From Propionispora vibrioides (GTDB taxonomy: Bacteria; Bacillota; Negativicutes; Propionisporales; Propionisporaceae), in assembly GCF_900110485.1 (NCBI RefSeq), contig NZ_FODY01000008.1, positions 93,187 to 157,186 on the forward strand: DNA of 64,000 nt. The letters run 5' to 3'. How positions within the stretch are numbered: position 1 is the first letter of the stretch; each line of letters begins with the position of its first letter. The notes below the pieces were generated by a model. It had not been told where the DNA came from. It saw only the letters and a list, made by a program, of their open reading frames with translations, and ran no database searches. The position numbers and the translations under genes were made by a program. Shown piece by piece: positions 25,900 to 43,315 of this stretch.

Positions 25900-26274
25900 C
25901 TAAAACAGTCTGGCAATACCAATCCCCAGCCAGGTGGCAAAAAAACCGACTCCCAAATTGAGTCCTACATTATAAAAAGCCCGCAAGGCATCGGCAGTTT
26001 GCAGTAAGCGCAAAGTCTCATAACTAAAGGATGAAAACGTAGTCAAACCGCCTATTAAGCCAATGGCGACAAGCAATCGCCAGTAGGGGCTGATGCTTAA
26101 CCGCTCGGTGGTCATTGTCAAAAATAAGCCGATAATGAAGCACCCTACCACATTAACAAGCAACGTCCCAAAGGGAAACTCCGGACCAAACCGCTCCGCC
26201 ATCCAATTGGACACTAAATACCGAATGACTGAACCAATCCCACCGCCGACCGCTACTAAAACAATTCCCAGCAT
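25900..26274 (-). CDS. crcB: Fluoride channel CrcB (Fluc)
   Basis: 124 aa with four membrane helices. Family motifs are GGGIGSVIRYLVSNW, FGTLLVNVVGCFIIG (with the channel Asn) and GGLTTFSSFSYETL (Phe box and Na-site region). Fluc proteins form antiparallel dimers that let fluoride leave the cytoplasm. It is the last gene of an operon headed by a fluoride riboswitch at 28727-28779 (antiporter, universal stress protein, DUF190, crcB). AGAGGTGA precedes ATG 26274. Some Firmicutes need two crcB genes; only one is in this window. Confidence 0.95.
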   Translation of the reverse strand: MLGIVLVAVGGGIGSVIRYLVSNWMAERFGPEFPFGTLLVNVVGCFIIGLFLTMTTERLSISPYWRLLVAIGLIGGLTTFSSFSYETLRLLQTADALRAFYNVGLNLGVGFFATWLGIGIARLF

Positions 26275-26309
26275 ATACTTTCACCTCTCTTGCCTCGTCT
26301 GTTCTTCTG

Positions 26310-26657
26310 TTATCGCTTCGGTGGTTTATGACCGTATTTGATAACTTCTATATCGTCAATCGTAACCATTCCCTCCTCCAGCATATCATCCAGGAAGGGC
26401 AATAGCTTGGCAACATACTCCTCACTGTCGATAATTTCCACTAAAATGGGTAAATCACTGGATAAATCCACAATACTGGCCGTATGAATCCGGCTGTTGG
26501 CCCCATAACCCACGATGCCGCGAAACACCGTCGCCCCCGCCATATCCAGTTCCTTGGCCTTTTCCACGATAGCTTGATACAAAGAACGCCGTTTCCAGTG
26601 ATCGCTTTCCCCGATATAAATCCGTAATCGTTTGGCCTGACTCGCAATTTTGGGCAC
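26310..26657 (-). CDS. DUF190 protein (first of three)
   Basis: 115 aa, a ferredoxin-like/PII-like fold family common beside crcB: RLRIYIGESDHWKRRSLYQAIVEKAKE, VFRGIVGYGANSRIHTASIVDLSSDLP, LVEIIDSEE. Start GTG 26657 is set by GGAGGAG 5 nt upstream. It is very similar to the DUF190 protein at 34638-34988. The PII-like fold hints at regulation of a transporter, here CrcB or the antiporter, but this is unproven. Confidence 0.88.
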   Translation of the reverse strand: MPKIASQAKRLRIYIGESDHWKRRSLYQAIVEKAKELDMAGATVFRGIVGYGANSRIHTASIVDLSSDLPILVEIIDSEEYVAKLLPFLDDMLEEGMVTIDDIEVIKYGHKPPKR

Positions 26658-26691
26658 AAAGACTCCTCCTTCAACTTGATACCAATCAACT

Positions 26692-26838
26692 TTTTATAGC
26701 CCGGCTGCCTGCAACGGCCTAAACCGGCACAGCAGCGTGTATGATCTTTTGCAGCCTGGTCGCCGGCTGCCACCACGACAGCCAATACGGCTCGGGCCAG
26801 CCAGCTACCGGGCCGTATTTTTGTAATTTTCTCCGTTA
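26692..26838 (-). pseudogene. Frameshifted remnant of the small membrane protein found at 35030-35320
   Basis: On the minus strand ACGGCCCGGTA...GGCTGTCGTGGTGGCAGCCGG... aligns with the second half of the intact gene at 35030-35320. In one frame it reads RPGSWLARAVLAVVVAAG (intact copy: RPGIWQDRARLAVVLAAG); after a frameshift it reads LQKIIHAAVPV then a stop (intact: LLHLVVRAAVAL). The N-terminal half is gone. It stands directly before DUF190, the same order as in the intact pair, showing that a [membrane protein-DUF190] unit was duplicated and this copy decayed. Confidence 0.75.
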
Positions 26839-26924
26839 ACCCTTAGGGGGGTGCTTAACTATCCGCAACAACCCTAACGGCACTTTTTGTACCATACTTC
26901 GTTAACATTTTTGATATGCTATCT

Positions 26925-27350
26925 TTATTTTACCACAACAACCGGCACTTTAGCATAGGTAACCACCTTTTGCACTACACTGCCAATAATCAGACTTTTA
27001 AATCCACCCATGCCCCGTGTACCCATGACAATCAAATCGGCCCTGCGATCAACAGCGTAGCGCATCAGGCTCTCCGCCGGATGGCCCTTTAAGATTTCCG
27101 TCTGTAGAAAAATCCCCTGTTCCTCACCATAAACCACAGCCTGCTCCAGCAGCGGCCGGTACTGTTTCTCTCCATCGGCGTACCATTCATCCACTTCATC
27201 AATGCTGGAGCTAAATTCAGGGGGCTTAACCACACTGGCCACTACCACCGTCGCCCCCTCAAACCTGGCAGCCAGGCCTACCGCCCAGACTAACGCCTTG
27301 TGGCTGCCGGCTGAGCCGTCATAAGCCACAACTATTTTTTTCAAATCCAT
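26925..27350 (-). CDS. Universal stress protein (UspA family)
   Basis: 141 aa, one Usp domain. MDLKKIVVAYDGSAGSHKAL at the N-terminus and GTRGMGGFKSLIIGSV near the C-terminus form the ATP-binding Usp pattern (G-2X-G-9X-G-S/T). Start ATG 27350 follows the antiporter stop by 1 nt, so it is co-transcribed and under the same fluoride riboswitch. Usp genes are known members of fluoride-riboswitch regulons; the mechanistic role is unknown. Confidence 0.9.
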   Translation of the reverse strand: MDLKKIVVAYDGSAGSHKALVWAVGLAARFEGATVVVASVVKPPEFSSSIDEVDEWYADGEKQYRPLLEQAVVYGEEQGIFLQTEILKGHPAESLMRYAVDRRADLIVMGTRGMGGFKSLIIGSVVQKVVTYAKVPVVVVK

Positions 27351-27351
27351 A

Positions 27352-28527
27352 TCAATCGGCCTCCCTCTCCCTGATAACCATGTTTTTTATCACTGCCGGC
27401 GATTCGTCGGTCTCATCTGTCGGGAAAAACCATTTTTGGGCGATCATCGTCGGCACCACGGCGCTCAAAATGACGGTTGCCACCAGTACACTGTACTGTC
27501 CCTCATCGATATAGTGATTAGTTAGCCCGTACAAGGCCGAAATAGTGCCAAAGGTCAGACCGGTGCTCATTAGCAAGGTAGTGTAAATACCGGTACGCGG
27601 TGTATAGTGAAACCAGTTGGTCGCCGGCAATACGCCGATAAACTTGGCAGCCATTTTGATCAGCAGGAAAACCAGGATAGTCCCGGACATCGTATACAAA
27701 GCTCCCACCGATACCAGTACCCCCGCTTTAATGAAATAGAACGGCGTAAAAACGGCAAATACAATGGCTCGCATTTTCACCAGCGTTGGTTTGTAGTGCT
27801 TGAAAAAGCGGGCCATGGCCATACCGATAATATAGGCCGGAAGTACCGCCTCGCTGCCGCTGATTACCGCCAGATAGGCCAGGGCTAAGAGTACCAGAAA
27901 AATGAACTTGATTTCCGGCTCACTGACCCGCCCGCCATACCATTTGAATATCCTGGCAGCCAGCGGAGTAATAACCAGCACAGCCACGATCATAACTGCT
28001 GTAAACCAGACGACCTTTAGCGAAAATCCGGTAAAGAGCAACCCCAGGGCCAGCACCGTCCCCAAATCAGTGACAAAGCAGGCCGCCAGAATGCCTTGAC
28101 CTAAACGGCTGGCCGACAGCCCGCTTTCTACCATGACGGCATACACGACGGCCACTGAGGTGGTTGACAGTGCAATACCGGCAATTTTAGCGGCATTGCC
28201 GTCCCAGCCGAACATATACTCGGCAAGCCACATGCCGCCCAGAAAGGGCAGCAGAAACGATAAAAAGCCAATCACCAGACTTTCTTTCAGGTTGCCTTTA
28301 AGACTATCGGGATCAATCTCAGCCCCGGCAAGAAAGGTCAACACCACAGCACCAAATCCGGCTAAAAAAGTAACCCAGGATGTAATCTCCAAATGCATGG
28401 CGTTGCCGCCAATCACACCCACGGCAATCTCCATAAGCGCCACCGAAATGCCCAGCCGGATAGACAGGACGGTGGCAATAAGGGCCAGCAGCACCCACTG
28501 CGCGGCAATAGCAAAGTTCTGTTCCAT
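27352..28527 (-). CDS. CPA2-family cation/proton antiporter
   Basis: 391 aa with about twelve membrane helices, of the Kef/NapA type (GFGAVVLTFLAGAEIDPDSL, ALSTTSVAVVYAVM, VTDLGTVLALGLLF). It lacks the C-terminal RCK domain of KefB/C. Sodium/proton antiporters of this type recur under fluoride riboswitches and probably restore ion or pH balance when HF enters. ATG 28527 has AAGGAGGT 11 nt upstream. A 156-bp inverted-repeat element separates it from the riboswitch. Confidence 0.88.
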   Translation of the reverse strand: MEQNFAIAAQWVLLALIATVLSIRLGISVALMEIAVGVIGGNAMHLEITSWVTFLAGFGAVVLTFLAGAEIDPDSLKGNLKESLVIGFLSFLLPFLGGMWLAEYMFGWDGNAAKIAGIALSTTSVAVVYAVMVESGLSASRLGQGILAACFVTDLGTVLALGLLFTGFSLKVVWFTAVMIVAVLVITPLAARIFKWYGGRVSEPEIKFIFLVLLALAYLAVISGSEAVLPAYIIGMAMARFFKHYKPTLVKMRAIVFAVFTPFYFIKAGVLVSVGALYTMSGTILVFLLIKMAAKFIGVLPATNWFHYTPRTGIYTTLLMSTGLTFGTISALYGLTNHYIDEGQYSVLVATVILSAVVPTMIAQKWFFPTDETDESPAVIKNMVIREREAD

Positions 28528-28566
28528 TGACAGCTACCTCCTTGTTAGTCCTTGACTAATACTCCC

Positions 28567-28722
28567 AGGGTGTGCTTCAAATTAACGAAATGTTCTATGG
28601 CGAGTGACTTTTGCGAAAAGACAAAATTCACGAAAATGGCCCTTACTTCCAAAAATTTCAACGAAGTGTGTCAAAAAAGCACCCTTCAAAGACACTCCGA
28701 ACCATTTGCCAACACACCCTAG
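28567..28722. mobile_element. MITE-like element inserted between riboswitch and antiporter gene
   Basis: The 156-bp segment begins AGGGTGTGCTTCAAAT and ends ATTTGCCAACACACCCT, so the outer ends are inverted repeats (AGGGTGTG / CACACCCT). It has no coding capacity. A diverged partial copy of its left end occurs at 50276-50328. It starts 4 nt from the 3-prime end of the fluoride aptamer (28727), where the other copies have their terminator hairpin. Confidence 0.6.
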
Positions 28723-28726
28723 GGAA

Positions 28727-28779
28727 GGTAGGAGTTATTACCGCGTTCACTGCGGGGTTATGGCGAACTCCATCGCCGG
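28727..28779 (-). promoter_or_regulatory. Fluoride riboswitch 1 (antiporter-usp-DUF190-crcB)
   Basis: On the minus strand GGCGATGGAGTTCGCC, ATAACC, a GCAGTGAACGCGG stem and TAATAACTCCTACC reproduce the crcB-motif aptamer. Unlike most copies here it is not followed by a matching GGTAGGAGT arm and T tract: the inserted element begins at once. No convincing promoter separates it from the enolase gene, whose stop is 42 bp upstream, so readthrough from the enolase unit may supply the transcript. Confidence 0.9.
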
Positions 28780-28820
28780 TTTTTACGCCGTTCTGCCTGA
28801 AAAATCAACCGGACAGCCTG

Positions 28821-30101
<1,281 letters not shown>

Positions 30102-30221
30102 ACATAGCGCCTCCTTCGATAAATTACCTATAAGATTTGTTAGCAAACACCTATCAATACATTCAACTCTAATTTTTTCACCAATTAAACTTATATTAGA
30201 CTTGTTCTTAGCAGCGGGCAG

Positions 30222-30300
30222 AAAAAAAACAGACTCCTACCACCTAAGTGGTAGGAGTCATTACCGTCTGCACGGACTTAAAGGCGAACTCCATCGCCGC
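30222..30300 (-). promoter_or_regulatory. Fluoride riboswitch 2 with terminator (enolase)
   Basis: Aptamer at 30250-30300 (GCGGCGATGGAGTTCGCC ... TAATGACTCCTACC). Its 3-prime strand also forms the terminator hairpin GACTCCTACC/GGTAGGAGTC (30232-30259) followed by eight T residues, the classic mutually exclusive expression platform: fluoride-bound aptamer prevents termination. It is 120 nt upstream of the enolase start. Confidence 0.96.
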
Positions 30301-30317
30301 TATAAAAATATGGCTTT

Positions 30318-30347
30318 ATTATATCAGCCGGTCTGATTCTGCGTCAA
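30318..30347 (-). promoter_or_regulatory. Promoter of the enolase riboswitch transcript
   Basis: TTGACG (30342-30347), 18 nt, TATAAT (30318-30323) on the minus strand, overlapping the last codons of the upstream dynamin-like gene, so enolase has its own promoter. Confidence 0.75.
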
Positions 30348-32145
30348 TAGCAACCGCTTTGCCAAACTCTGGCTCTACGGTATTCACTTGCTGCAAAAGC
30401 TGCTGCAATTGCCCGGCAGCCCGCTGCAGCCGGCTGCACCGGTCTGCCACATCCTCAGTTTGTCCCTGTTTTTGCACCGCCGCGGCAGCAACTGCCTGGG
30501 CAGTCCCGTCCACCGCCTCGGCCAGCCGGGCACTAAAGGTTGCCCGGAAGGAATGAAAAGCTGCCTCCGTATTCTGTAAAAGAGCCCAACGCAGGCTTTC
30601 CACATTCCGCAGCACCAGCGTTTCCACCTGCCGTTCCAGACGCTTGCGGATACGGACAAACCGAAACGAGGCCGGTAGCAGTACCTCCAGCCAGGTGTGG
30701 GGAATTCCCCCCAGGCCTGTTTGCCATTCCGTTTTTACCCAATAGGGCTGACGTTTCATTTGAAAGGTCAGCTCCTGCTCCACCGCCTGATAATCAAGGG
30801 CAAAAATGGTGGCTGCCGTCTGACGCACCGCCTGAATCAAAGCCTCAGCCCGCTGCTGATGAACAGCCATTACACCGGCCAGGTAGTCGCTAAACTGGTC
30901 GGCAGTGGCTGACAGTTCCCGGTCAAAAAAGGGAGCAACAGCCGCCATCAGGGCAGCCTGAGCGTCCCGCTCCAGACCGGGACGTTCACCACCGCTTAGC
31001 TCTTTTGCCACCACATGGGATAAGTAGTCCCGGGCCTGCTGCCGCAAGAAGCCGGCCTGCTGCTCCAGAAAGTCCAAAGCCCGCTTGCGATCACCGGCCA
31101 GTATGTCATCGGCCTGCTGCTCTTCGTCCGTCAATTCTGTCAGTTTCTGCCGCAGCAGTGCCTGCTTGGCGGCCAATTCATCGACCGGCATAAGCAGAAC
31201 CTGGACGGCAAGCTCCAGCTCCAACAAGGCTTCCCGCAGCACGGCAGCCAGTTTGGTTTCAATAGCCATAGCCAGTACCGCCTGCATTTCCTGCCGGAAG
31301 AAAGCTGTTAATACCTCCTCCAGCAGGCCTAACCCACTAGCCGCCAGCAGACGGCTATCACCTCTCGCTTTGCCCAAAACTGCCTGCCGGGCCGATACCT
31401 GGTAGACGGTTTCCACTGCTATGCCGGCCTGTTCCCGCAAAACCTGCCGCAAAAAGCTAACCATGGTGTCCTGTTCCTCACTGCTGAGATGATCAGCCTT
31501 ATTGAGCACAAAAAACAAACGCCGCACATGATGCTGCACAATCTGCAGAAACGCCAATTCCGCCGCCGTAACCGGCGGGTCGGCAGATACGACAAACAGC
31601 GCGGCATCACACTGGGCAAGAAACCGGAGCGTCGTGTCCGTATTATGCCGGAAAGTAGAACCAATGCCCGGCGTATCAATCAGGACGACTCCGCCGGCCA
31701 GCAGTGCCGCCGGATATTCTACAATCACCTGCTCCACCTGCAAACAATTGGCCGGGTTGGCCTGTTCCGCCACAAACCGGCTCAAATAGTCTGCCAGTGA
31801 CGCATCATCATCAAATACGCCCTGTTCCTCCCGTCCGTCAGCAAACGTTATATATGCCCGCCGTCGCATCCCCTGACGGATGACGGTCGGCAGCGCCGTC
31901 ACCGGCACCAAACTGGACGGCAAAAACGGGCCGCCCAGCAAAGCATTGATCAGGCTGCTTTTGCCGCGCTTAAACTGCCCCAGTACCGCCAAATGAAATT
32001 GTTTTTCCCTCAGCCGCTCCGCTAGTTTTTCCACCCGGACAGCATGCGGGATAAATCGATTGCCAACCTGCCTTAGCTGCCCGGCTGCCTCTTCCAGCAG
32101 TCCGGTCAGGCAGGCTTCCTGTTCCGGCATACGGTCATATTTCAT
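30319..32145 (-). CDS. Dynamin-like GTPase 1
   Basis: 608 aa. The GTPase domain shows the P-loop GQFKRGKSSLINALL (residues about 57-70), switch region FLPSSLVPVTALPTVI, DTPGIGS and the base-specificity motif LNKADHLS. A long helical stalk follows, with a hydrophobic/basic segment near ETLVLRNVE and PASFRFVRIRKRLERQ that could touch membrane. Bacterial dynamin-like proteins remodel or protect membranes. It is the last gene of a three-gene operon under fluoride riboswitch 3. A related protein is encoded at 38156-40054. Confidence 0.85.
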   Translation of the reverse strand: MKYDRMPEQEACLTGLLEEAAGQLRQVGNRFIPHAVRVEKLAERLREKQFHLAVLGQFKRGKSSLINALLGGPFLPSSLVPVTALPTVIRQGMRRRAYITFADGREEQGVFDDDASLADYLSRFVAEQANPANCLQVEQVIVEYPAALLAGGVVLIDTPGIGSTFRHNTDTTLRFLAQCDAALFVVSADPPVTAAELAFLQIVQHHVRRLFFVLNKADHLSSEEQDTMVSFLRQVLREQAGIAVETVYQVSARQAVLGKARGDSRLLAASGLGLLEEVLTAFFRQEMQAVLAMAIETKLAAVLREALLELELAVQVLLMPVDELAAKQALLRQKLTELTDEEQQADDILAGDRKRALDFLEQQAGFLRQQARDYLSHVVAKELSGGERPGLERDAQAALMAAVAPFFDRELSATADQFSDYLAGVMAVHQQRAEALIQAVRQTAATIFALDYQAVEQELTFQMKRQPYWVKTEWQTGLGGIPHTWLEVLLPASFRFVRIRKRLERQVETLVLRNVESLRWALLQNTEAAFHSFRATFSARLAEAVDGTAQAVAAAAVQKQGQTEDVADRCSRLQRAAGQLQQLLQQVNTVEPEFGKAVAIDAESDRLI

Positions 32146-32199
32146 CCCGCTCTCTCCCTTCTCAAGCTGCCACTGCTCCGTTTTTCAGCACGGGCATGG

Positions 32200-32634
32200 T
32201 CAGCCGCCACTTACCAAATAAATCAGGCATACCCGGCGTTTAAAACAGCCCAGCAGCCGGTATAGCCGATTCAGCCACAGCCGGCCGGCCGGAGCTACCG
32301 GAACCAGCCCTTTAAAATCAGTTTCTTTAACCGGTTCCACCGTCACCATTCCATCGCTGCACATATCATCAAGACAGTTCAGCAACTGCCGGAGCCGGGA
32401 TTCCCGGTCGAGCACCTCAATCATCACCGGAATCTCCTGACAAAGCTTCCAGGGCTGTTCCACATGCCAGGTGTCACTGCCGCCATACCCCATGCAGCCC
32501 TGCAACGCGGCAACCCTGACAATCCCCAGGGCCTTGGCTTTCCCCACCACCGCTTGATACAGCGACCTGCCCCGGTAACGGTCAGTGGTTTGTAAATAGA
32601 TACATATTCGCAGGACCGGGTCTTTTTCTTGCAT
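32200..32634 (-). CDS. DUF190 protein (second, divergent)
   Basis: 144 aa. The core VLRICIYLQTTDRYRGRSLYQAVVGKAKALG ... ALQGCMGYGG ... IPVMIEVLDRESRL keeps the DUF190 pattern but differs strongly from the other two copies and has a basic C-terminal extension (LWLNRLYRLLGCFKRRVCLIYLV) that may be membrane-associated. It lies between an unrecognised protein and dynamin-like GTPase 1. The start is ATG 32634 with a TAGGAGGTAG site about 8 nt upstream. Confidence 0.8.
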   Translation of the reverse strand: MQEKDPVLRICIYLQTTDRYRGRSLYQAVVGKAKALGIVRVAALQGCMGYGGSDTWHVEQPWKLCQEIPVMIEVLDRESRLRQLLNCLDDMCSDGMVTVEPVKETDFKGLVPVAPAGRLWLNRLYRLLGCFKRRVCLIYLVSGG

Positions 32635-32655
32635 AGCCTTCTACCTCCTATGCTT

Positions 32656-33519: not shown

Positions 33520-33543
33520 ATGTGTTCCCTCCTTTCTGTATGT

Positions 33544-33620
33544 AAAAAAATAAAGACTCCTACCGTTTTCCGGTAGGAGTCATCACCTGGCCAGCCAGGA
33601 TTGGAGCGAACTCCATCGCT
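33544..33620 (-). promoter_or_regulatory. Fluoride riboswitch 3 with terminator
   Basis: Aptamer 33572-33620 begins AGCGATGGAGTTCGCT, a compensatory change of the GGCGATGGAGTTCGCC stem seen in other copies. Terminator GACTCCTACC/GGTAGGAGTC at 33555-33581 then TTTATTTTTTT. Promoter TTGACG-18-TACAAT at 33636-33665. It controls the PH-like, DUF190 and dynamin genes. From 33666 to 33825 nothing is visible. Confidence 0.95.
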
Positions 33621-33825
33621 CTCTTACTTACTCTTATTGTAACAATTGGGAAGTGTCCCCGTCAAGCATCCGGCAACTTTCCTCCTGTTTCTTCCTAGTG
33701 TCATAACACACAGCAGCACCTGCTAGGACACGCTGCCGCCATAGGCTGGATACCCCCTAAGAAAAAACCGCCGCCCTGTTGATCAACTTTTTTTGGACAT
33801 TCGGCCAACCCTCGTTAAAGCAGCC

Positions 33826-34308
33826 TTAGCTTCGTAACGTTGCAATCAGCCGTTGGGGCTGCAAAAGCAGTTTGATGGCCTCCACCGGCGACTGAACCAC
33901 AACGTTTGCCAGCGACAGCAGGCACGCCCCGGCTCCTTCCGGGCCTAATACGCAGATTCGCAGCCCGGCAATAAAAAACATGGGCTGATCATTGACGCCA
34001 TTACCGATGACTACGGTATGCTCAGAACCCCATGTTTGAACATACCGGGCTTTTTCTGTACCATCTTGTCCCGGCTCCAATATAATAAGTTCCACTCCCG
34101 GCAAGTCTGCCAGCGCCTGGCGCGCCAAGCCAAACGTATCTGCCGTTATTACGGATACCTGGATCGTGGCTGACAGCTCAACCAGTAAGCGACGCACGTC
34201 CTCACTTATTCTTCCTTCCTCTGCCAATGTCCCATTAAAATCAAATACCGCATGGCGGAATTCATACTGTCTGCCATTAGGCAACTGTACAGAAATCACT
34301 TTCTCCAC
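33826..34308 (-). CDS. HAD-family phosphatase (soluble P-type ATPase-like)
   Basis: 160 aa. Motif I is FDFNGTLAEEG (nucleophile Asp, with Asn in place of the usual second Asp, as is normal for the COG4087 soluble P-type ATPase-like group); motif II VSVITADT; motifs III/IV include VVIGNGVNDQPMF. It is a cytoplasmic hydrolase of unknown substrate. It stands downstream of the DUF190 gene at 34638, from which it is separated by a MITE-like repeat, and may once have been or still be part of the riboswitch 4/5 operon. HAD proteins are also fluoride/aluminium-fluoride-sensitive enzymes. Confidence 0.8.
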   Translation of the reverse strand: MEKVISVQLPNGRQYEFRHAVFDFNGTLAEEGRISEDVRRLLVELSATIQVSVITADTFGLARQALADLPGVELIILEPGQDGTEKARYVQTWGSEHTVVIGNGVNDQPMFFIAGLRICVLGPEGAGACLLSLANVVVQSPVEAIKLLLQPQRLIATLRS

Positions 34309-34637: not shown

Positions 34638-34988
34638 CTACTGCTCCTTGGAGAACTGGCGGCCATATTTGATAACCTCCGCATCATCAATCATAACCAT
34701 TCCTTCTTCCAACGCATCATCCAAAAAGGGCAGCAGCTTGGCAATATACTCCTCACTGTCGATAATCTCAATCAAAACAGGCAAATCACTGGATAAATCC
34801 AGGAGGGTAGCTGTATGAATCCGGCTATTCGCCCCATAGCCCATCACTCCCCGCAATACGGTTGCTCCCGCCATGTCCAGCTCTTTTGCCTTTTCCACAA
34901 GCGAATTATACAAATTCCGCCGTTTCCGGTGATCATCCTCACCAATATAAACTCGCAAGCGCTTAGCCTTACTTGCAATTTTAGGCAC
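34638..34988 (-). CDS. DUF190 protein (third)
   Basis: 116 aa: VPKIASKAKRLRVYIGEDDHRKRRNLYNSLVEKAKE, LRGVMGYGANSRIHTATLLDLSSDLP, LIEIIDSEEYIAKLLPFLDD. It is a close paralogue of the copy at 26310-26657. GTG 34988 is the start because GGAGGAGG lies 7 nt upstream and the N-terminus then matches its paralogue; the longer open frame upstream is out-of-frame sequence of the membrane-protein gene. It follows that gene by 41 bp and is under riboswitches 4 and 5. Confidence 0.88.
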   Translation of the reverse strand: MPKIASKAKRLRVYIGEDDHRKRRNLYNSLVEKAKELDMAGATVLRGVMGYGANSRIHTATLLDLSSDLPVLIEIIDSEEYIAKLLPFLDDALEEGMVMIDDAEVIKYGRQFSKEQ

Positions 34989-35320: not shown

Positions 35321-35500
35321 CCATTTACTCCGAGACACGCGCTTAACTGCAGGGTGTTATCGCCGATTCCGGCAAGGGCAAAACCTCCATGCCGCCGCAA
35401 AGCTCATTCACTTGAACAAATCTTTGACAACGAGGCTCATAACTTCCACTACGCAATGACGGAAAAACTTTATCTCCTCTGCAATTGCCTCCTTCCCGGC

Positions 35501-35531: not shown

Positions 35532-35547
35532 CCATAGTAATAGTAAA

Positions 35548-35603: not shown

Positions 35604-35758
35604 TCCTCTGGCTGAGACTACGGGAACAAAAACAAATTGGCAGCTATTCCTGAGCGAACCGATTGGGCTACAAAGCTTGCCAGGCTCAAGCTACCTATTT
35701 CCTGGGCACTTTTCCTGCCTCCCTGGACAAGATTTATTGTCACTATCAAGCGCAAGGC

Positions 35759-35836
35759 AAAAAAATAGACTCCTACCACTTAAGTGGTAGGAGTCATTAG
35801 CGTCTGCAAAAAGGGTAAGGCGAACTCCATCGCCGC
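35759..35836 (-). promoter_or_regulatory. Fluoride riboswitch 5 with terminator (outer member of a tandem)
   Basis: Aptamer 35786-35836, terminator GACTCCTACC/GGTAGGAGTC at 35768-35795 followed by TATTTTTTT. It is 156 bp upstream of riboswitch 4 and reads into the small membrane protein-DUF190 unit. Confidence 0.95.
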
Positions 35837-35857
35837 TGTTAATTGAATTATGGACCT

Positions 35858-35887
35858 ATTATACCAGGCTGCCTGAACCATCGTCAA
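35858..35887 (-). promoter_or_regulatory. Promoter of the riboswitch 5/4 transcript
   Basis: TTGACG (35882-35887), 18 nt, TATAAT (35858-35863) on the minus strand. Confidence 0.8.
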
Positions 35888-35947
35888 TATAAACCTGCCG
35901 CAGGTATACGAAAGGTGACGGGTACGCAGTAACTATCCTCTTTAAAT

Positions 35948-36778: not shown

Positions 36779-37010
36779 GCTGTCTCCTCCTTCTATTGAT
36801 TAAAAATATGATTTCTTACTATCACCCACTAATCCATGTAAAACCAGCTAAAGCACCACCCCCTCAGTCTGTTGCCTCTTACGGTTCACGGTTCCCTTTC
36901 CCCAGATTATCACCCCCTTTCTATAAAGCACTGCCCTTCGCTCCGCCGCCATTCCCTTGCGACTTCACCGTCGCCGGCAATAAAAACAGACGGTACACGC
37001 TTTTTTTAAG

Positions 37011-37083
37011 ACAAAAGATAGACCCCTACCGCATATGGTAGGAGTCATTATTCCTGATCGGATTTATGGCGAACTCCATCGCC
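37011..37083 (-). promoter_or_regulatory. Fluoride riboswitch 6 with terminator (inner, aquaglyceroporin)
   Basis: Aptamer 37037-37083 (GGCGATGGAGTTCGCCATAAATCC ... TAATGACTCCTACC); terminator GACTCCTACC/GGTAGGGGTC at 37021-37046 then TATCTTTTG, with a weaker T tract than riboswitch 7. No promoter is evident between it and riboswitch 7. It lies 233 nt before the aquaglyceroporin start; 36779-37010 has no other feature. Confidence 0.94.
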
Positions 37084-37186
37084 TCTTCTTATATTTAAAT
37101 GCTCTGGCTTGACCGCTGCAAGGCTCCCCTCTCCCTATACGGATTCTGTAACGTACAATAAATAGACGGTACACGCTTTTTAAGAC

Positions 37187-37258
37187 AAAAAAACAGACTC
37201 CTACCGCATATGGTAGGAGTCATTATCCTCGGTTGGATTTATGGCGAACTCCATCGCC
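37187..37258 (-). promoter_or_regulatory. Fluoride riboswitch 7 with terminator (outer, aquaglyceroporin)
   Basis: Aptamer 37212-37258; terminator GACTCCTACC/GGTAGGAGTC at 37196-37221 then TGTTTTTTTG. It is a tandem duplicate of riboswitch 6 including flanking GACGGTACACGCTTTTT (at 36989 and 37165). Upstream on the minus strand TTGACT-17-TACAAT near 37283-37311 is a likely promoter. Confidence 0.95.
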
Positions 37259-37367
37259 TTTTCCTATACCTATTATATATTCATTGTACAATAGTCAAAC
37301 AATTCAGTCAATACTCTATTGAACCTGCTTTATTAAACCTGTAACCCGAATACGGGAGCACATCTTG

Positions 37368-38159
37368 CTAATATAACTCCTCCACTGCCATACGAACCGC
37401 CCAGTCACCGCTTTCCCATAGTTCGGCCAGGCGTAGCAGCACTTTTTCCCGTCCAGCGCCGGAGTCTCTCGCCAGACAGATGGAGCAGGCGGTCAAGGCA
37501 ACCTGGATATCAGCATCCAGCACCAGTTCCCACACCGTTTGGGGTACTGCTTGGCGCGGGTATAGCTCATCAAACAGATTCAGCGCACTGCGCCGGAGCC
37601 GAAGGCTGGATTCGAGTTCCACGTCCGCCAAAGGCACTGTCCGAACGGCCAAAGACAGCAAACAGGAACAAGCGGCCGGCCCCAGCTTGCGAAAAGCCGT
37701 TTCCGCCGCCGACCGGCAAAAGTCCTCAGCCAGGGCGGCAGCCAAAACAGGCAGGGCGTCCATTCGGCGGTACTCACCCAAAGCAGCCACAATACCCGGC
37801 AGCAGCTTGCGTTTTGCCACCGCCAACAATAGCAAAAAGGTCGCATCGTCCGGCCAGCGAGTCAACGCACGGGCAACAAAACTCAACACGGCATCCTCAC
37901 CGGCCTGTTCCACAGGATCAGCGAAACTTCGCGGAGCGGTTAAAAATTCAAGCAGTACTGCTTTGGCCCCCAGCTTGGCCAAAGCCTCTACAGCCTGACA
38001 GCGCGGTTGAAATAGGCCGCAGGGCTCACGGCTGAACAAAAATTCACGGAGCGGCCCCACAGCCGCTTGTCCACAGTCGATCAGCTCGGCTATCGCCTCA
38101 TCCCCTTCGCGCAAGGCCCGCAATTTGCCAAGGGCAGCTTGGATACGTGGTCCGCTCAT
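37368..38159 (-). CDS. HEAT-repeat-like protein of the fluoride island
   Basis: 263 aa, all-helical and rich in Leu/Ala. Repeating helical pairs such as QAVEALAKLGAKAVLLEFL, LPGIVAALGEYRRMDALPVLAAAL and AAETAFRKLGPAACSCLLSLA resemble HEAT/armadillo repeats, a scaffold for protein binding. The start ATG 38159 overlaps the stop of dynamin-like GTPase 2 (ATGA), so the two are translationally coupled; the longer frame to 38189 is rejected. It is the last gene of the riboswitch 8 operon. A role as GTPase partner is inferred. Confidence 0.75.
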   Translation of the reverse strand: MSGPRIQAALGKLRALREGDEAIAELIDCGQAAVGPLREFLFSREPCGLFQPRCQAVEALAKLGAKAVLLEFLTAPRSFADPVEQAGEDAVLSFVARALTRWPDDATFLLLLAVAKRKLLPGIVAALGEYRRMDALPVLAAALAEDFCRSAAETAFRKLGPAACSCLLSLAVRTVPLADVELESSLRLRRSALNLFDELYPRQAVPQTVWELVLDADIQVALTACSICLARDSGAGREKVLLRLAELWESGDWAVRMAVEELY

Positions 38160-40054
38160 AGGATTCCGTCCTCCGGCCAGGGAATACACACATACCGTTC
38201 ACCGACAAGATGGATGACAGCCTGCCGGTAAGCCTCCTCCTCATCACGGTTCTGCAGCTCCCGGCGGACCGCTTCATGTTTCAAGGCATAGCTGCGCATA
38301 TCTTCCGCCGCCTCCTCAAACCGCTGCGCCCCATGGTCAATCAGAAACTGCTGATCATCTGCGTCAACAGCCGCCACCAGCAAACTAAGATGGCGAAGAC
38401 AAACGCCCTGGGAACGTCGATACCAGCGCCGCCCGGCAGCTTCGCCAAGCCAGACGGCAAGCTGCCCGATATAGTCCGCCTCGGCTTGACGGAGCAGCCG
38501 GCAAACCCGGCAATTCCGGGAATCATGCACCAGTTGCCGCAGCTTCTCCTCCCTGGCCGGCCCGTCGCTGATCCGGTGCAAACGGCGGGCGGCCTCTTCA
38601 GCCAGCCGCGCATAACCGACAGAAGCGCCGTGGGCCGAAGCTAAGGCGAGCAGTTGCCAGGTATGGAGCGGGCAAAAGCCCAGTTCCGCGGCAAAACCGG
38701 CCTGGTCCTGTTCCTGCATGCTGATCTGGTACTGCCAGCGGCGGAAAAATTCCCGCCCATAGTTCTCCAAATGCCGGCATACCGGGCAGCCCTTGCTCCC
38801 CAACTCGGGCAAGTGCTTTGCCGGGGCAGTTGCCGGCACGGTGAAGGCAGCCGGATTTACTGCCTCGGCGGGTAACGGTATCCCTGGCAGAAAGTCGCCG
38901 TCTAACAACGCTGCCGGCTGATTTTCCTGCATCCGTTTAGCCAAAGCCGCCAGTTTTGCCTGTACAGCCATGATCAGGGGCACAGCAGAGCCATCGCGCC
39001 GAGTCGTACCGGCTGATTTTTCCCCGCCATTGCCACTGTCCTCCTGTCCGGTGGCTTCCTGGCAGAAATTCTGTTCCATCGCTGCGTCTCCTATTTGCAG
39101 CGCCTTATGCAGTACTGCAGCCAGAAAGGCCTGCGACTTTTCCTCCGCCAGAAAAGCAGCCAACGTTTCTTCCAGCGCTTTCATGCCGCTTTGTTCATAA
39201 CCGGCCGGGTCACCGGCCAATCGGGCAGCAAGTCCCTGCCGGGCGGAAACGGGAAAGACCTTTATCGCAGCGCCTCCGGTTTGTTGGCGGATGGTATCGG
39301 TCACAAACGTTAGTACCGCCTCCTGTTCGGCAGGACTCACAAGATCCAGCTTATTCACAACAAAGAAAATCCGGTTCACATATTCCCGGATTTCCCGGAG
39401 AAAGGCCAGTTCCAGACTGGTCAGCGGCGTATCCACACTAATGACAAACAATACGGCGTCACATTCGGGTAAGAAGCCATAGGTGGTTGCCGTATTAGCC
39501 GTAACGACCGAGCCGACACCCGGTGTGTCGACGAATTCAACGCCGCGCCGCAAAAAGGGAACAGGCAATTCGACCGTGGCGGTCTTTACTTTTTTTTGAT
39601 TGGACGGATTACCTTTTTCGGTAACATAGTCGGCCAGCGCCGCAACAGGCAGTTCATCGGGGAACAGCGAATTTTCCCGGCGAACCACCAATCGTTCCGT
39701 AGCGCCGTACTTAAGCACCGTAATCGCCGAGGTAAGGGGCAGCACGCCGGTAGGTAAGAGTTCGCGCCCAATAATTGCATTCATCAGCGAGCTCTTGCCC
39801 CGTTTGAACTGGCCGACTACGGCCAGTGTGAACCGGTCTTCCGCTAGCTTTACCAATAGCTCCCCGCACCGTCGCCCGCTTTCTTCCCGGCCCAGCGTTG
39901 TCAGAGCTTCGCGCTGCAGCCGTAGCTGCTCGGCCAGGAACAATTTCGCCTGCGTATAGCCCCGCAGCTTGGCCAAATCGGGATTAACCGGCGCGGTATC
40001 TTCCGTATCAGCCGACCGCGCTGCGGCAACATAGGCACCATCCTTTTCGTCCAT
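38156..40054 (-). CDS. Dynamin-like GTPase 2 with a C-terminal Cys/His module
   Basis: 632 aa. The GTPase domain shows GQFKRGKSSLMNAII (near residue 80), PTGVLPLTSAITVLKYG, DTPGVGS and VNKLDLVS. The region after about residue 400 differs from GTPase 1: it carries CPVCRHLENYG, FCPLHTWQLL, CRVCRLLRQAE and CLRHLSLL, paired Cys/His motifs that resemble DUF6062-like modules and could bind zinc. ATG 40054 follows the MutS-like gene by 13 bp. It is thus the third gene of a four-gene operon behind riboswitch 8. Confidence 0.82.
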   Translation of the reverse strand: MDEKDGAYVAAARSADTEDTAPVNPDLAKLRGYTQAKLFLAEQLRLQREALTTLGREESGRRCGELLVKLAEDRFTLAVVGQFKRGKSSLMNAIIGRELLPTGVLPLTSAITVLKYGATERLVVRRENSLFPDELPVAALADYVTEKGNPSNQKKVKTATVELPVPFLRRGVEFVDTPGVGSVVTANTATTYGFLPECDAVLFVISVDTPLTSLELAFLREIREYVNRIFFVVNKLDLVSPAEQEAVLTFVTDTIRQQTGGAAIKVFPVSARQGLAARLAGDPAGYEQSGMKALEETLAAFLAEEKSQAFLAAVLHKALQIGDAAMEQNFCQEATGQEDSGNGGEKSAGTTRRDGSAVPLIMAVQAKLAALAKRMQENQPAALLDGDFLPGIPLPAEAVNPAAFTVPATAPAKHLPELGSKGCPVCRHLENYGREFFRRWQYQISMQEQDQAGFAAELGFCPLHTWQLLALASAHGASVGYARLAEEAARRLHRISDGPAREEKLRQLVHDSRNCRVCRLLRQAEADYIGQLAVWLGEAAGRRWYRRSQGVCLRHLSLLVAAVDADDQQFLIDHGAQRFEEAAEDMRSYALKHEAVRRELQNRDEEEAYRQAVIHLVGERYVCIPWPEDGIL

Positions 40055-40067
40055 ATGCCCGTACCCC

Positions 40068-41591
40068 CTAACCGGTAGTTTCTAAAACATCAGCTGTTAC
40101 ACCAAATACTTCGGTATACAAGTCTTCCCCAAAACTGGTGGGCTGCGGTTCACCTTCCACTATTTTAAAGCTCCTCGTTCCGCTATTTTGCCGCTCGGCC
40201 TGCAGAAAAATCGCGTTATCCAGCTTTTTCTCATAAAAACCATGGGCCAACGCATATTGATGGGTAACAAAAAACACCTGAATGTGCTTTTCCAATAAGG
40301 CGGACACGATCTGCCTGGCAATTTCCGAGCCTTCGCGTTCGTTTGTCGCTGCAAAGGATTCATTGAACAGGATCATGGACTGGGGCGTGATATTGTCTAC
40401 CATACCACTCATCCGGCTAAGCTCTTCATCCAGTTTGCCGCTGGTCATCGCCGTGTCTTCTTCCCGCTTATAGTGCGTGAACAGACCGCTGCACACGCGC
40501 GCGCAGAAAGCTTCTGCCGGTACAAACATCCCGCATTGCATAAGCAGTTGAGCCAGGCCGATACTGCGTAAAAAGGTCGACTTGCCCCCCTGATTGGCGC
40601 CGGTGATCATTACCAGGTCTTTCTGATCGGCCTGCGCGTCATTGCCTACCACCCGCTGCGCCAGGAGCAAGGTCAGGCAAATGTCATACAGCCCCTTAAA
40701 GGAAAGGCAACGCTCCTGGCTGGCTCCAGGAACGGGAAAAGTAACCGGCTCTTCCTTGGCGGCAAGTTTCTCCCGCAAATTCAAGCAACCGACATAAAAA
40801 GCCAGTTCCGTCCGCAGCATGGCAAAAAAACTGTTGATATGCTCCACAGACTGGGCCAGGGCATTGGCAACCAGGTTAATCCCCCGGTCCTTTAACTCTC
40901 CCAGCGCCCTGGCACCGGCTTCATCCCGCTCATGGATATGGATCGTATAGGCCGGCGGCTACTGAGCAAAGAGCCGCTCCAGCCAGCTTTGCTTTTTATC
41001 CTGTACCTTATGCAGGGTGTAGCCGGTCCCCTCGTTGCCCTTGCCCAAAGCAGCACTGACCAGAACGCCGCTACGGAACTGGAGGTGCCGCAAATGCTCC
41101 TGTACCAGGGCAAAATAGTCATCGGCAAGCTCTTGCCGAAGCATGGCAAAAAGCACCCGGAAGCCCTCCGATTCAAAGTTACCGGCATATTCATCAGCTA
41201 GCTGCTTAAGTTGTTTCAGCCGGGCCAGAAACAGTTGCAGGGCTTCCCGTGCGCTATATAGAATGCCTGCCGGATAGCGGCCGAAAATGCTGAAATAGAG
41301 CTTTTTCTTTTTTTCCTCCATGGCCTCTGTGACAATAAGGTACATCTTTCTGACTACAGCAGGATTGTTCAGACAATCCTTAAGAATAGCCTGACGATAA
41401 AGAATAGTGTCTATATCATCCGTCCCGCACAACAGGCTTTTCCTGGCCACATCAAAGAGAAATTGATCACCGGATGCCATGGTCTGAAACAACGTAGTCA
41501 ATTCCAGATCCTGCACCAGGTCGTCGGCATTGGCCGGCAAGGCCTGTTGCAAATTAAAATCACGGTCCCTATACATAAGAAAAGCTTTCAT
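40068..41591 (-). pseudogene. MutS-like ATPase 1 interrupted by an in-frame amber codon
   Basis: A MutS-family protein reduced to the clamp/lever and ABC-type ATPase parts; it lacks the mismatch-binding N-terminus. ATPase motifs are GANQGGKSTFLRSIGLAQ (Walker A), SMILFNESFAATNEREG (Walker B/signature) and VFFVTHQYAL. A TAG at 40959-40961 (codon 211) follows LFAQ; the same frame continues PPAYTIHIHERDEAGARALG and into the ATPase domain, so one base restores a protein of about 507 aa. The first half alone has no ATPase. Start ATG 41591 overlaps the upstream stop (ATGA). Confidence 0.87.
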
Positions 41592-43120
41592 GATGGTATA
41601 CGCTCCTTTAGCAGGCGGTAGGTAAGCCGGTACTTCTCGGCAATGGATATGGCATGGGCCAGGCCGTCGGCAGGCCTTCGCACAATCCGGTACGTTCGCC
41701 TGGCCGGATCGTCGGGCACTACGGTACTCACCATACTCACGGTTTGCTCGCTTAAAGCGGCCAATTCATCGATGAAGGTTACACAAACACACAACAAATC
41801 CAGTTCCATGATTCGCTGCATAATCTTCCTGCCCAGCAGCACGGCGTCGTTCAACGTGGTGGAGGTAAAGATTTCATTCATAATAATGATGCTGTTTGCC
41901 GTAGTCCGGTCAAGAATATCATGAATTCTGACCAAATCATCCTGCAGTTTGCTGCGCAGATTGTTGATGTCTTCTTCTTTTTCAAAATGCGTAAACAACC
42001 TGTCGCACAAAAAGAGTTTGGCTTGCCGCCCCGGCACAGGACAGCCCAACCCGGCCAGATAATGCAGTTGGCCAAACGTACGGGCAAAGGTTGTCTTGCC
42101 GCCTTGGTTCGGACCGGTTACCACAATAATCCGTTCGCGGCCCTGCAGGTGAAAATCATTGCACACAACGGCTTCCTTCCGGCCAACCAGTTGAGCGGCC
42201 AGAGCCAGATCAAACCCGTCGTAATCGTAAATTTCCTTACAGGTAGCGGAAAGCAGCGGATAGCAAAACCGCAGCCCCGCCTGCTTTAGCTTATCAGTAT
42301 GTTCCAGGTAAGCCATATAAAATTGTACCTCCCGGTCAAACACAACCAGTGTCTCATCGGGAAAACGGCTATGTTTTGCGCAAAAGGCGTCGAGCCTGGC
42401 AAAGCTGTCGGGATACAATTGGGCTACGCAATCCAATATTTGCGCTTCCATATGGTTCATGCCCATCCCGCTGGCAAACTTCGCTTTATAGTCCTGTACC
42501 GCTCCCTGCTTAAATTTGGCAAAGGTTTCTTCTACGTCAATGCTATAGTCTGCCTCAGCTTCATAGTGGCGAACTTTGATGGCCCCATCCTTGATGAGCA
42601 GGCAATATCTTATGGCAGTTAATTCAGCCTTAAGCTCCCGGGTCTCCGCCACAAGCGCCCTAAACTCTCCGGCCCGGGCATAGGCCGCCACATATTCGCG
42701 AAAAGCTAAAAAGCCGCGGGAGCGTAACCCGGCAGCGTTCAAGTCCTCTGCTAAACGGGTAACGGCTGCGCAATACCGGTCTACCGCCTCGAGAAACCAA
42801 CCCGCTTTATGGTAATGATAATAGAGCTTTTCAACGGAACCAAGATAACCGCGGATGGCCCGCATATTGTCCGCGAACGAACGGATAGCGGCCAATAGAG
42901 TTTGATTGCCAAGCTCCTGCATGACTTCCTGGCGATACCGGACGGCTTCCTCATCAGGCAGAGCAATATAAAAAAACGATTTTAAATCATATTCCTGCTT
43001 ACCGGCCGTGATGGCCTCCACAATCTGGTCCAGATTCAAATCCCGGAAAAAAGCCGGTTCTTCCCTGATTTCCCTTCGCAAATGCCCGGCATGTTCCGCA
43101 AACAGTATACTAAAGCTCAT
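41588..43120 (-). CDS. MutS-like ATPase 2
   Basis: 510 aa, the intact tandem paralogue of the next gene, with core/lever helices and a MutS ATPase: VTGPNQGGKTTFARTFGQ (Walker A), SIIIMNEIFTSTTLNDAV (Walker B and signature) and LCVCVTFIDEL. There is no mismatch-recognition domain, so classical mismatch repair is unlikely; the fluoride riboswitch literature lists MutS-like genes as regulon members. ATG 43120 has GGGAGGTG 5 nt upstream; the longer frame to 43165 is rejected. It is the first gene behind riboswitch 8. Confidence 0.87.
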   Translation of the reverse strand: MSFSILFAEHAGHLRREIREEPAFFRDLNLDQIVEAITAGKQEYDLKSFFYIALPDEEAVRYRQEVMQELGNQTLLAAIRSFADNMRAIRGYLGSVEKLYYHYHKAGWFLEAVDRYCAAVTRLAEDLNAAGLRSRGFLAFREYVAAYARAGEFRALVAETRELKAELTAIRYCLLIKDGAIKVRHYEAEADYSIDVEETFAKFKQGAVQDYKAKFASGMGMNHMEAQILDCVAQLYPDSFARLDAFCAKHSRFPDETLVVFDREVQFYMAYLEHTDKLKQAGLRFCYPLLSATCKEIYDYDGFDLALAAQLVGRKEAVVCNDFHLQGRERIIVVTGPNQGGKTTFARTFGQLHYLAGLGCPVPGRQAKLFLCDRLFTHFEKEEDINNLRSKLQDDLVRIHDILDRTTANSIIIMNEIFTSTTLNDAVLLGRKIMQRIMELDLLCVCVTFIDELAALSEQTVSMVSTVVPDDPARRTYRIVRRPADGLAHAISIAEKYRLTYRLLKERIPS

Positions 43121-43235
43121 AAAAACACCTCCCTGTTTAAACCCCTGGTTCTTACCGGCAGACACCCATAACCCGTCAACCCAAACAAGCCGCTATCCTT
43201 CATTCTTCACGATCGCCGTCCACATCCTCGGCATA

Positions 43236-43315
43236 TAAAAAAATGACTCCTGCAGACTTTTTAGCCTGCAGGAGTCATTAGCGCTTACGCGCTTTTACGG
43301 TGAACTCCATCACCG
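43236..43315 (-). promoter_or_regulatory. Fluoride riboswitch 8 with terminator (MutS-like operon)
   Basis: Aptamer 43268-43315 reads GGTGATGGAGTTCACC, a covarying version of the GGCGATGGAGTTCGCC stem; 3-prime strand TAATGACTCCTGC. The terminator (GACTCCTGCAG/CTGCAGGAGTC-like, 43245-43276) has changed in concert and ends in a T run. TTGACA-17-TAGTAT upstream (about 43342-43370) is a likely promoter. The bases 43371-43580 are AT-rich and empty. Confidence 0.95.

What the first reader, a model, noticed from the sequence alone, without database searches (positions are those of the whole stretch)
25900..43315. Fluoride-response island with eight riboswitches in about 15 kb
Eight copies of the crcB-motif aptamer (28727, 30250, 33572, 35548, 35786, 37037, 37212, 43268; all minus strand) serve nearly every gene between crcB and the MutS-like pair. 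Known fluoride-regulon members are present (crcB, usp, CPA2 antiporter, enolase, MutS-like). The same switches also head genes I do not know as fluoride genes: two dynamin-like GTPases, an aquaglyceroporin, a HEAT-like protein, a PH-like protein, a two-helix membrane protein and three DUF190 proteins. Covariation among aptamer copies (GGCGATGG/TTCGCC, GGTGATGG/TTCACC, AGCGATGG/TTCGCT) supports functional selection. Such a density of one riboswitch class suggests a dedicated multi-layer fluoride resistance system.
Basis: partly seen in the sequence, partly recalled or inferred. Interest (0 to 1): 0.93.

Follow-up and report, generated by a model that had tools for sequence, protein, structure and literature searches.

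The report
Eight-switch bacterial fluoride-defence island
A 17-kb stretch of what is likely a Propionispora chromosome carries eight fluoride-sensing RNA elements in front of 16 genes, among them dynamin-like and MutS-like proteins whose relatives also sit near such elements in other bacterial groups, so it is likely an inducible, multi-layer fluoride-defence island.

Summary
Rfam RF01734 hits all eight sites above its gathering score, all on the minus strand; the genome has two more. Five aptamers lie just behind five of the six best minus-strand promoter-like sites of the region; the other three are second in series. Six of eight overlap an intrinsic terminator. Of 80 named MutS-a loci, 61 held a switch and 32 a dynamin gene; six of those dynamin genes stand within 500 nt of an Rfam-confirmed switch. 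Limits: no expression data; enolase and MutS-b each carry an in-frame stop here (open in sister G001); 19 of 80 loci show no switch; the aquaporin is switch-linked only in this species pair. Known kind (a fluoride regulon), new extent, new recurrent members, and in-series switches that may combine transcriptional and translational control.

The parts
43262..43323 (-). fluoride aptamer 1, unit mutSa-mutSb-dynB-HEAT; overlapping terminator 43279-43242; promoter-like 43366-43338
   Evidence: RF01734 47.3 bits; terminator and promoter
41588..43165 (-). mutSa: MutS-like ATPase, 525 aa, MutS core without mismatch-recognition domain
   Evidence: PF00488; model pLDDT 83.2, MutS/MutS2 core fold
40068..41591 (-). 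mutSb: second MutS-like ATPase, interrupted by in-frame TAG at 40959-40961
38156..40054 (-). dynB: dynamin-like GTPase fused to Cys-rich DUF6062
   Evidence: PF00350 98.3 bits, PF19538 34.8 bits
37368..38189 (-). HEAT-like protein
   Evidence: PF13646 weak, below cut-off; relatives in MutS-a loci and a plasmid fluoride cluster
37207..37267 (-). fluoride aptamer 2, first of tandem ahead of aquaporin; terminator 37221-37196; promoter-like 37311-37283
   Evidence: RF01734 45.8 bits
37032..37092 (-). fluoride aptamer 3, second of tandem, no good promoter; weaker terminator 37046-37021
   Evidence: RF01734 44.3 bits
35948..36778 (-). aquaglyceroporin (MIP family)
   Evidence: PF00230 166.3 bits; TIGR00861
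35781..35843 (-). fluoride aptamer 4, first of tandem; terminator 35795-35768; promoter-like 35887-35858
   Evidence: RF01734 39.2 bits
35542..35611 (-). fluoride aptamer 5, second of tandem, no terminator, no good promoter; an AGGAGG lies 48 nt downstream in the sister's copy
   Evidence: RF01734 49.2 bits
35030..35257 (-). small hydrophobic (two-helix) protein, relatives in other fluoride loci (G001, G091, G119)
34638..34988 (-). DUF190 copy c
33826..34308 (-). HAD-like protein, no switch of its own
   Evidence: weak HAD; in switch-linked gene runs of relatives
33567..33629 (-). fluoride aptamer 6, unit PH-DUF190b-dynA; terminator 33581-33555; promoter-like 33665-33636
   Evidence: RF01734 38.0 bits
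32656..33519 (-). PH-fold protein with two PH-like parts, no Pfam/NCBIfam family
32200..32634 (-). DUF190 copy b
   Evidence: PF02641 80.8 bits
30319..32145 (-). dynA: dynamin-like GTPase
   Evidence: PF00350 100.1 bits
30245..30307 (-). fluoride aptamer 7 ahead of enolase; terminator 30259-30232; promoter-like 30347-30318
   Evidence: RF01734 46.6 bits
28821..30101 (-). enolase frame, interrupted by in-frame TAG at 29028-29030
   Evidence: PF00113/PF03952
28722..28786 (-). fluoride aptamer 8, between enolase and cpa2, no good promoter, no clear terminator; likely translational type
   Evidence: RF01734 50.4 bits
28551..28725 (-). long leader between aptamer 8 and the cpa2 ribosome-binding site, present here and in G001 (86.5% identical); the leaders of G002 and G111 are short
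27352..28527 (-). CPA2-type Na+/H+ antiporter
   Evidence: PF00999 126.7 bits
26925..27350 (-). universal stress protein
   Evidence: PF00582 115.1 bits
26310..26657 (-). DUF190 copy a
   Evidence: PF02641 133.9 bits
25900..26274 (-). crcB fluoride channel gene (Fluc family)
   Evidence: PF02537 103.4 bits

Best explanation
The window holds a likely fluoride-response island in which eight RF01734 aptamers stand in front of 16 same-strand genes that they are predicted to switch on when fluoride enters the cell. Shown by sequence: eight aptamers above the Rfam cut-off; five promoter-like sites, each ending 6-15 nt upstream of an aptamer match; six terminator hairpins whose 5' arm contains the very ACTCC that the aptamer pseudoknot needs. 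Inferred: without fluoride the terminator forms and transcription stops; Mg-bound fluoride locks the pseudoknot, the terminator cannot form and the unit is read. Three aptamers have no good promoter and lie second in series (after enolase; ahead of the aquaporin; ahead of the small hydrophobic protein). The switch ahead of the antiporter gene has no clear terminator here or in G002 and G111; predicted folds hide its AGGAGG ribosome-binding site in the strand at or just behind the pseudoknot strand, so it is likely translational, and unit 5 would then be gated first at transcription and again at translation. Predicted output layers: fluoride export (CrcB), proton balance (CPA2 antiporter), replacement of the fluoride-sensitive enolase, and an NTP-driven repair layer (MutS-like pair, two dynamin-like GTPases, PH, HEAT proteins) tied to fluoride islands. 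I think the last layer most likely repairs or protects membrane and poisoned enzymes rather than DNA; that step is inference.
For: 8/8 RF01734; 10 in genome. Five of the six minus-strand promoter-like sites that score 10-11 of 12 serve 5 of 8 aptamers; random stretches reached 10 or more in 8 of 1000. The six longest-stem terminator-like sites of 25.8-43.7 kb are all switch terminators; 63 of 68 switch sites in other genomes overlap a terminator vs 13 of 400 random positions. Class reverse searches over 300 genomes: mutSa in 9, all 9 with a switch upstream in the gene run; dynA in 9, all 9; dynB in 8, all 8; PH in 7, 5 directly behind a switch. 80 named mutSa loci: mutSb adjacent in 79, a switch in 61, directly upstream in 38; 8 of 43 dynamin genes start within 500 nt of a switch vs 2.8% of random positions, six of these confirmed by Rfam and a seventh (L149, the contig of G087). 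Ribosome-binding site paired in the predicted fold of 4 of 4 antiporter-type leaders. Plasmid clusters with the same genes.
Against: No transcript or fluoride data. Two of the 16 genes are interrupted here, so the island may be partly decayed in this isolate, or the draft may hold errors. The profiles for the reverse searches were built from switch-linked proteins, which favours switch-linked relatives. 19 of 80 mutSa loci showed no switch although all 19 were also scanned with Rfam; 10 of the 19 are contigs of 10 kb or less, 9 are longer than 12 kb. HEAT relatives had no switch within 3 kb upstream in 7 of 7. One PH gene (G047) has no switch found, and in G003 the switch lies downstream of PH. 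Aptamer 5 faces no gene at a normal distance; aptamer 8 has about 150 nt extra before the start codon. In G002's predicted fold the ribosome-binding site is hidden while the pseudoknot strand pairs with its own partner, so exclusion of one by the other is not shown there.
Confidence: 0.82

Rival explanations
1. The MutS-like pair is a DNA-repair system switched on because fluoride stress damages DNA, as the published label for mutS under the crcB motif implies.
For: Weinberg et al. 2010 list mutS (DNA repair) as a crcB-motif gene (PMC2864571, passages read); the fold is a MutS core with a conserved Walker A-like GPNQGGKT.
Against: The model aligns with MSH2 from about residue 185 on and with the MutS2 core, so the mismatch-recognition domain (domain position recalled) is missing; all scores lie far below the MutS and MutS2 cut-offs, and MutS, MutS2 and KamC profiles hit the same ATPase part with broadly similar scores.
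Confidence: 0.25
2. The MutS-like pair works like KamB/KamC: a heterodimeric ATPase that reactivates a poisoned enzyme (for example enolase blocked by Mg-fluoride-phosphate). KamB and its pairing with KamC are recalled.
For: Two ~510-aa MutS-like ATPases, adjacent in 79 of 80 loci; NCBIfam KamC (508 aa) scores 74 bits on the C-terminal part of MutS-b; enolase in 26 of 80 of these loci.
Against: KamC similarity covers the ATPase domain only and is far below its cut-off of 300 bits; on MutS-a it is the weakest of the four profiles (44 bits); no KamC at E 1e-80 in 150 class genomes and none in the controls, so no comparison was possible; the listings showed no title on it and were not read further.
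Confidence: 0.25
3. The island is a decaying relic: the switches remain but the products no longer work as a system in this organism.
For: In-frame TAG in enolase and mutSb; an orphan second aptamer (35542); the longer cpa2 leader.
Against: 14 of 16 frames are open; all eight switches have counterparts in sister G001 (on two contigs), with the genes in the same order within each, both frames open and proteins 95-99% identical.
Confidence: 0.12
4. Dynamin, PH and HEAT genes are bystanders that only happen to lie in fluoride loci.
For: No function is known from any call; HEAT relatives have no switch nearby upstream; the aquaporin is unique to this species pair among the loci seen.
Against: Switch-dynamin junctions recur in records titled Tepidanaerobacteraceae, Proteobacteria, Atribacteria, Deltaproteobacteria, Bacteroidota and Acetobacteraceae; class-level DynA 9 of 9 and DynB 8 of 8 genomes switch-linked.
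Confidence: 0.06

Closest known systems
Fluoride (crcB-motif) riboswitch, RF01734
   Same: Sequence, P1 and pseudoknot pairing, terminator overlap, and crcB, enolase, antiporter, HAD and mutS among its targets (PMC2864571, PMC11139923, passages)
   Different: Eight in 14.6 kb; three in series; some copies with a likely ribosome-binding-site platform
Enterobacter cloacae FRM fluoride island (ppaC-uspA-eno-gpmA-crcB-orf5249; PMC5533749, abstract and passages read)
   Same: Switch-led multi-gene fluoride island with crcB, usp, enolase; the authors conclude that all six genes contribute
   Different: One switch and six genes; no dynamin, PH, HEAT or MutS pair among the six
Bacterial dynamin-like proteins
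   Same: Dynamin_N GTPase domain
   Different: One GTPase domain, ~600 aa, far below the DynA equivalog cut-off; DynB has a Cys-rich DUF6062 tail; in fluoride-switch gene runs
MutS2 / MutS core
   Same: Lever-clamp plus ATPase fold
   Different: No mismatch-recognition domain; neighbour pair in 79 of 80 loci; fluoride-switch linked
Tandem riboswitches (glycine; PRPP with guanine; PMC7266159, passages read)
   Same: Two aptamers in one leader
   Different: Here same-ligand switches in series; in one tandem (37207, 37032) each has its own terminator

Membership tests
Fluoride riboswitch RF01734 | Score above Rfam gathering cut-off | tested here: met
   8 of 8, 38.0-50.4 bits vs 34
Fluoride riboswitch RF01734 | P1 and pseudoknot covariation | tested here: met
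   3 pairs changed on both sides, 99.6% paired on 50 sites
Fluoride riboswitch RF01734 | Expression platform exclusive with aptamer | tested here: met
   6 of 8 overlapping terminators; aptamers 5 and 8 without
Fluoride riboswitch RF01734 | Binds fluoride and induces the gene | not testable with these tools
   needs probing or RNA-seq
CrcB/Fluc | PF02537 above cut-off | tested here: met
   103.4 bits vs 32.9
Dynamin superfamily (DynA, DynB) | PF00350 above cut-off | tested here: met
   100.1 and 98.3 bits vs 27
DynA equivalog (NF052648) | Score above 1600 bits | tested here: not met
   76.5 and 68.4 bits
MutS mismatch repair protein | Curated equivalog score | tested here: not met
   MutS-a 80.3 bits vs 480
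MutS mismatch repair protein | Mismatch-recognition domain | tested here: not met
   525-aa model aligns to MSH2 185-826 and MutS2 core 1-469; domain position recalled
MutS2 | Curated equivalog score | tested here: not met
   MutS-a 71 bits vs 400
KamC reactivase (NF052383) | Curated equivalog score | tested here: not met
   44-75 bits vs 300
KamC reactivase (NF052383) | Reactivates an enzyme with ATP | not testable with these tools
   biochemistry
PH-domain protein | PH fold | tested here: met
Aquaglyceroporin / MIP | TIGR00861 above cut-off | tested here: met
   205.2 bits vs 171.25
Aquaglyceroporin / MIP | Conducts glycerol, water or HF | not testable with these tools
   needs transport assay
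HEAT repeat | PF13646 above cut-off | tested here: inconclusive
   24.3 bits vs 27.7
UAG recoding (pyrrolysine) for the two TAG codons | PylS in the genome | tested here: not met
   TIGR02367: no match over cut-off in G000, best 23.6 vs 178.15 bits

The most novel reading that the evidence does not exclude
Bacteria of many phyla share a previously unrecognised fluoride-damage machine: a MutS-like ATPase pair without mismatch recognition, working with dynamin-like GTPases (and PH, HEAT partners), that remodels fluoride-poisoned enzymes or membranes; and some of its islands are gated twice by the same ion, first at transcription, then at translation.
Probability: 0.3. Interest if true: 0.82.

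Novelty: new variant of a known kind. Interest (0 to 1): 0.7.

Why it matters
Fluoride resistance is usually told as export plus a few replaced enzymes. Here a rare set of ATPases and GTPases keeps company with fluoride switches across bacterial groups, which points to a damage-repair layer that I found no assay of, and casts doubt on the DNA-repair label of the switch-linked MutS. The island is a compact list of genes for testing, and its serial switches offer a natural test of how one ion can set a sharp threshold. It also bears on defluorinating microbes, where released fluoride limits growth.

Tried and rejected
UAG read as pyrrolysine in enolase and MutS-b: rejected, no PylS over cut-off and the sister frames are open without a stop. 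Order and family samples held only 4 genomes, so a class sample of 300 was used. KamC in 150 class genomes: nothing rang anywhere, controls included, so no tree with KamC could be made. GGGtGRT (PF14057) as a fluoride-only family: rejected as such, 97 of 300 genomes have it and by coordinates I could place a switch upstream in 8. An own covariance model (R1, 5 pairs, no P3) proved biased to this class: it missed sites that Rfam found, so Rfam was run on 54 of the 80 named loci; the other 26 rest on R1 at E < 0.01. In L194 R1 put a switch 82 nt ahead of a dynamin gene that Rfam did not confirm. Paper searches for 'fluoride riboswitch' with dynamin, with MutS, with enolase and MutS, and for fluoride, riboswitch, crcB and DUF190 together gave 0 papers each; the library holds open papers only, and Baker et al. 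2012 (Science), whose gene list matters most, was not held, so I cannot say that dynamins are absent from it. A mixed search for aquaporin/HEAT/tandem terms was uninformative. The second-look list covered mainly residues 148-284 of the PH protein; its first half rests on predicted secondary structure and Foldseek only.

A claim that did not survive checking: I first read the antiporter leader of G002 as pairing the pseudoknot strand with the ribosome-binding site. One search shows that in G002's fold the site pairs with the stretch just behind that strand; the strand itself joins in G111 (6 of 6 bases), in the window (4 of 6) and partly in G013 (3 of 6). In G013 the gene behind that leader is a short antiporter start fused to a usp-like remainder, so G013 is weak support.

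Row choices: G001 is a near sister and is not independent of G000. In the terminator count the G000 and G001 sites were left out (68 sites of other genomes used). In the dynamin count, hits within 1.5 kb were merged. In tandem counts G119's third and G055's second aptamer are under the Rfam cut-off.

Full report
OBSERVATION. The whole genome (4.43 Mb, 58 contigs) has ten; the other two lie on another contig. In 300 genomes of the class 72 have at least one match; this genome and its sister G001 have ten each, the next 6, 5, 5 and 5 (stricter filters, so counts are lower bounds). On 50 aptamers P1 and the pseudoknot pair in 99.6% of cells with three pairs changed on both sides.

ORGANISM. The genome shares its genus with G002. 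G002's contig C14 has 139671 bases, the same length as the contig behind a protein named for Propionispora sp. 2/2-37. So the window most likely comes from a Propionispora.

WIRING. Six minus-strand promoter-like sites of the region score 10 or 11 of 12. Five of them end 6-15 nt upstream of the matches at 43262, 37207, 35781, 33567 and 30245; the sixth lies inside DUF190c (34771). Random 70-nt stretches reach 10 or more in 8 of 1000. The six longest-stem terminators of the region are exactly those that overlap aptamers 43262, 37207, 37032, 35781, 33567 and 30245. Each contains GACTCCT, whose ACTCC is the pseudoknot strand, so aptamer and terminator exclude one another. In other genomes 63 of 68 sites have such a terminator against 13 of 400 random positions. 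The units read: (1) 43262 > mutSa-mutSb-dynB-HEAT; (2) 37207 + 37032 > aquaporin; (3) 35781 + 35542 > small hydrophobic protein-DUF190c, with the HAD gene 329 nt further; (4) 33567 > PH-DUF190b-dynA; (5) 30245 > enolase > 28722 > cpa2-usp-DUF190a-crcB. Unit borders are inferred from gaps and strand.

SERIES. Aptamers 37032, 35542 and 28722 have no good promoter of their own (7-8 of 12, the commonest random score being 7). Same-strand neighbours within 300 nt occur also in G001 (twice), G119 (three in a row), G013, G037 and G055 (one aptamer each in G119 and G055 is under the cut-off). The switch ahead of the antiporter start has no terminator in G002, G111 and G013, and an AGGAGG stands near the start codon. 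In the predicted folds of these three leaders and of the window's own, four or five of the six AGGAGG bases (G002 5, G111 5, G013 5, window 5) pair with the stretch at or just behind the pseudoknot strand; the pseudoknot strand itself joins this hairpin in G111, the window and partly G013, but not in G002. I infer a translational platform, so that unit 5 would have a transcription gate followed by a translation gate. In G013 the gene behind is a fused remnant. In the window and in G001 about 150 nt extra lie between this aptamer and the start codon, so the mode is less sure here. Aptamer 35542 is also without a terminator and has an AGGAGG downstream but no gene start at a normal distance; it may be a leftover leader.

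DO THE UNKNOWN GENES BELONG? Reverse searches over the same 300 genomes: the full-length mutSa family is in 9 genomes (E 1.4e-244 or lower, next 3.4e-33), and all nine have a switch upstream in the same gene run, by coordinates. DynA (E 1.4e-116 or lower) is in 9 genomes, DynB (1.5e-164 or lower) in 8, all switch-linked. PH is in 7: directly behind a switch in G000, G001, G002, G032 and G119; in G003 the switch follows PH and precedes crcB; in G047 none was found. The search profiles came from switch-linked proteins, a bias. mutSb is adjacent in 79 of 80; enolase occurs in 26, crcB 17, cpa2 12, HEAT 7, PH 4; dynamin-like genes (43) in 32. 61 of 80 loci hold a switch, 48 of 57 among loci over 12 kb; 19 hold none, all scanned with Rfam too. 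Eight of 43 dynamin genes start within 500 nt of a switch (random 2.8%, binomial p 2e-5); 29 of 43 have none within 3 kb upstream. Of the eight, L149 is G087's contig (switch over cut-off), Rfam confirms six (L124, L126, L144, L158, L160, L197) and did not confirm one (L194). The HEAT protein never has a switch within 3 kb upstream in these 80 loci (0 of 7) but has a relative in a plasmid fluoride cluster of Methylocystis, 17 nt behind an RF01734 match. The aquaporin is switch-linked only here and in G001 among fetched loci.

KNOWN AND NEW. crcB, enolase, Na+/H+ antiporters, HAD proteins and mutS under this RNA are known (PMC2864571, PMC11139923, passages read). The Enterobacter cloacae FRM island is the nearest studied case I saw (PMC5533749, abstract and passages). 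I found no paper on dynamin under this switch in the library searched, and the 2024 review holds neither 'dynamin' nor 'MutS'; Baker et al. 2012 was not held. PH and HEAT proteins under this switch were not searched by a query of their own.

VERDICT. Real, well above chance, and rightly read as a likely fluoride island. What is new is its extent, its serial switches and the repair-type genes tied to fluoride switches across bacterial groups. Function of that layer is open.

Noticed in passing
L030 (own genome contig C15), 8223-11803: The two other fluoride switches of this genome precede an MFS transporter and a NifU-like plus GGGtGRT (PF14057) gene pair; the same pair starts 51-61 nt behind a switch in G001, G099, G013 and G119 and at one in G003. 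GGGtGRT itself is common (97 of 300 genomes).
   Followed up: partly
L036, 8814-10140: In G002 (likely Propionispora sp. 2/2-37) a cyclopropane-fatty-acid synthase-like gene (PF02353) lies 75 nt behind a fluoride switch, which fits a membrane-protection layer.
   Followed up: partly
L066, 7220-14980: Three fluoride aptamers in a row within 266 nt (one just under the cut-off) lie upstream of a six-gene complex-I/formate-hydrogenlyase-like run (Pfam hits in five of six) in G119, likely Lucifera butyrica.
   Followed up: partly
window 29028-29030 and 40959-40961: One in-frame TAG each in enolase and mutSb; the sister genome G001 has open frames.
   Followed up: partly
window 1135: A plus-strand frame that reads by eye like a chemotaxis receptor is interrupted by a TAA with 255 further open codons.
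   Followed up: no
window about 35345-35400: Between aptamer 35542 and the small hydrophobic gene a stretch resembles a degenerate aptamer by eye; it was no hit.
   Followed up: no
L231, L232, L233, L234, L235, L236: Plasmid-borne clusters with RF01734 in all six and MutS-a, dynamin or HEAT relatives in Methylocystis, Lichenicola, Caballeronia, Rhodococcus, Klebsiella and Rubrobacter, so such genes are also carried on plasmids.
   Followed up: partly
window 38156-40054: DynB joins a dynamin GTPase to a DUF6062 domain with repeated Cys motifs; in G037 a separate DUF6062 gene follows a dynamin gene.
   Followed up: no
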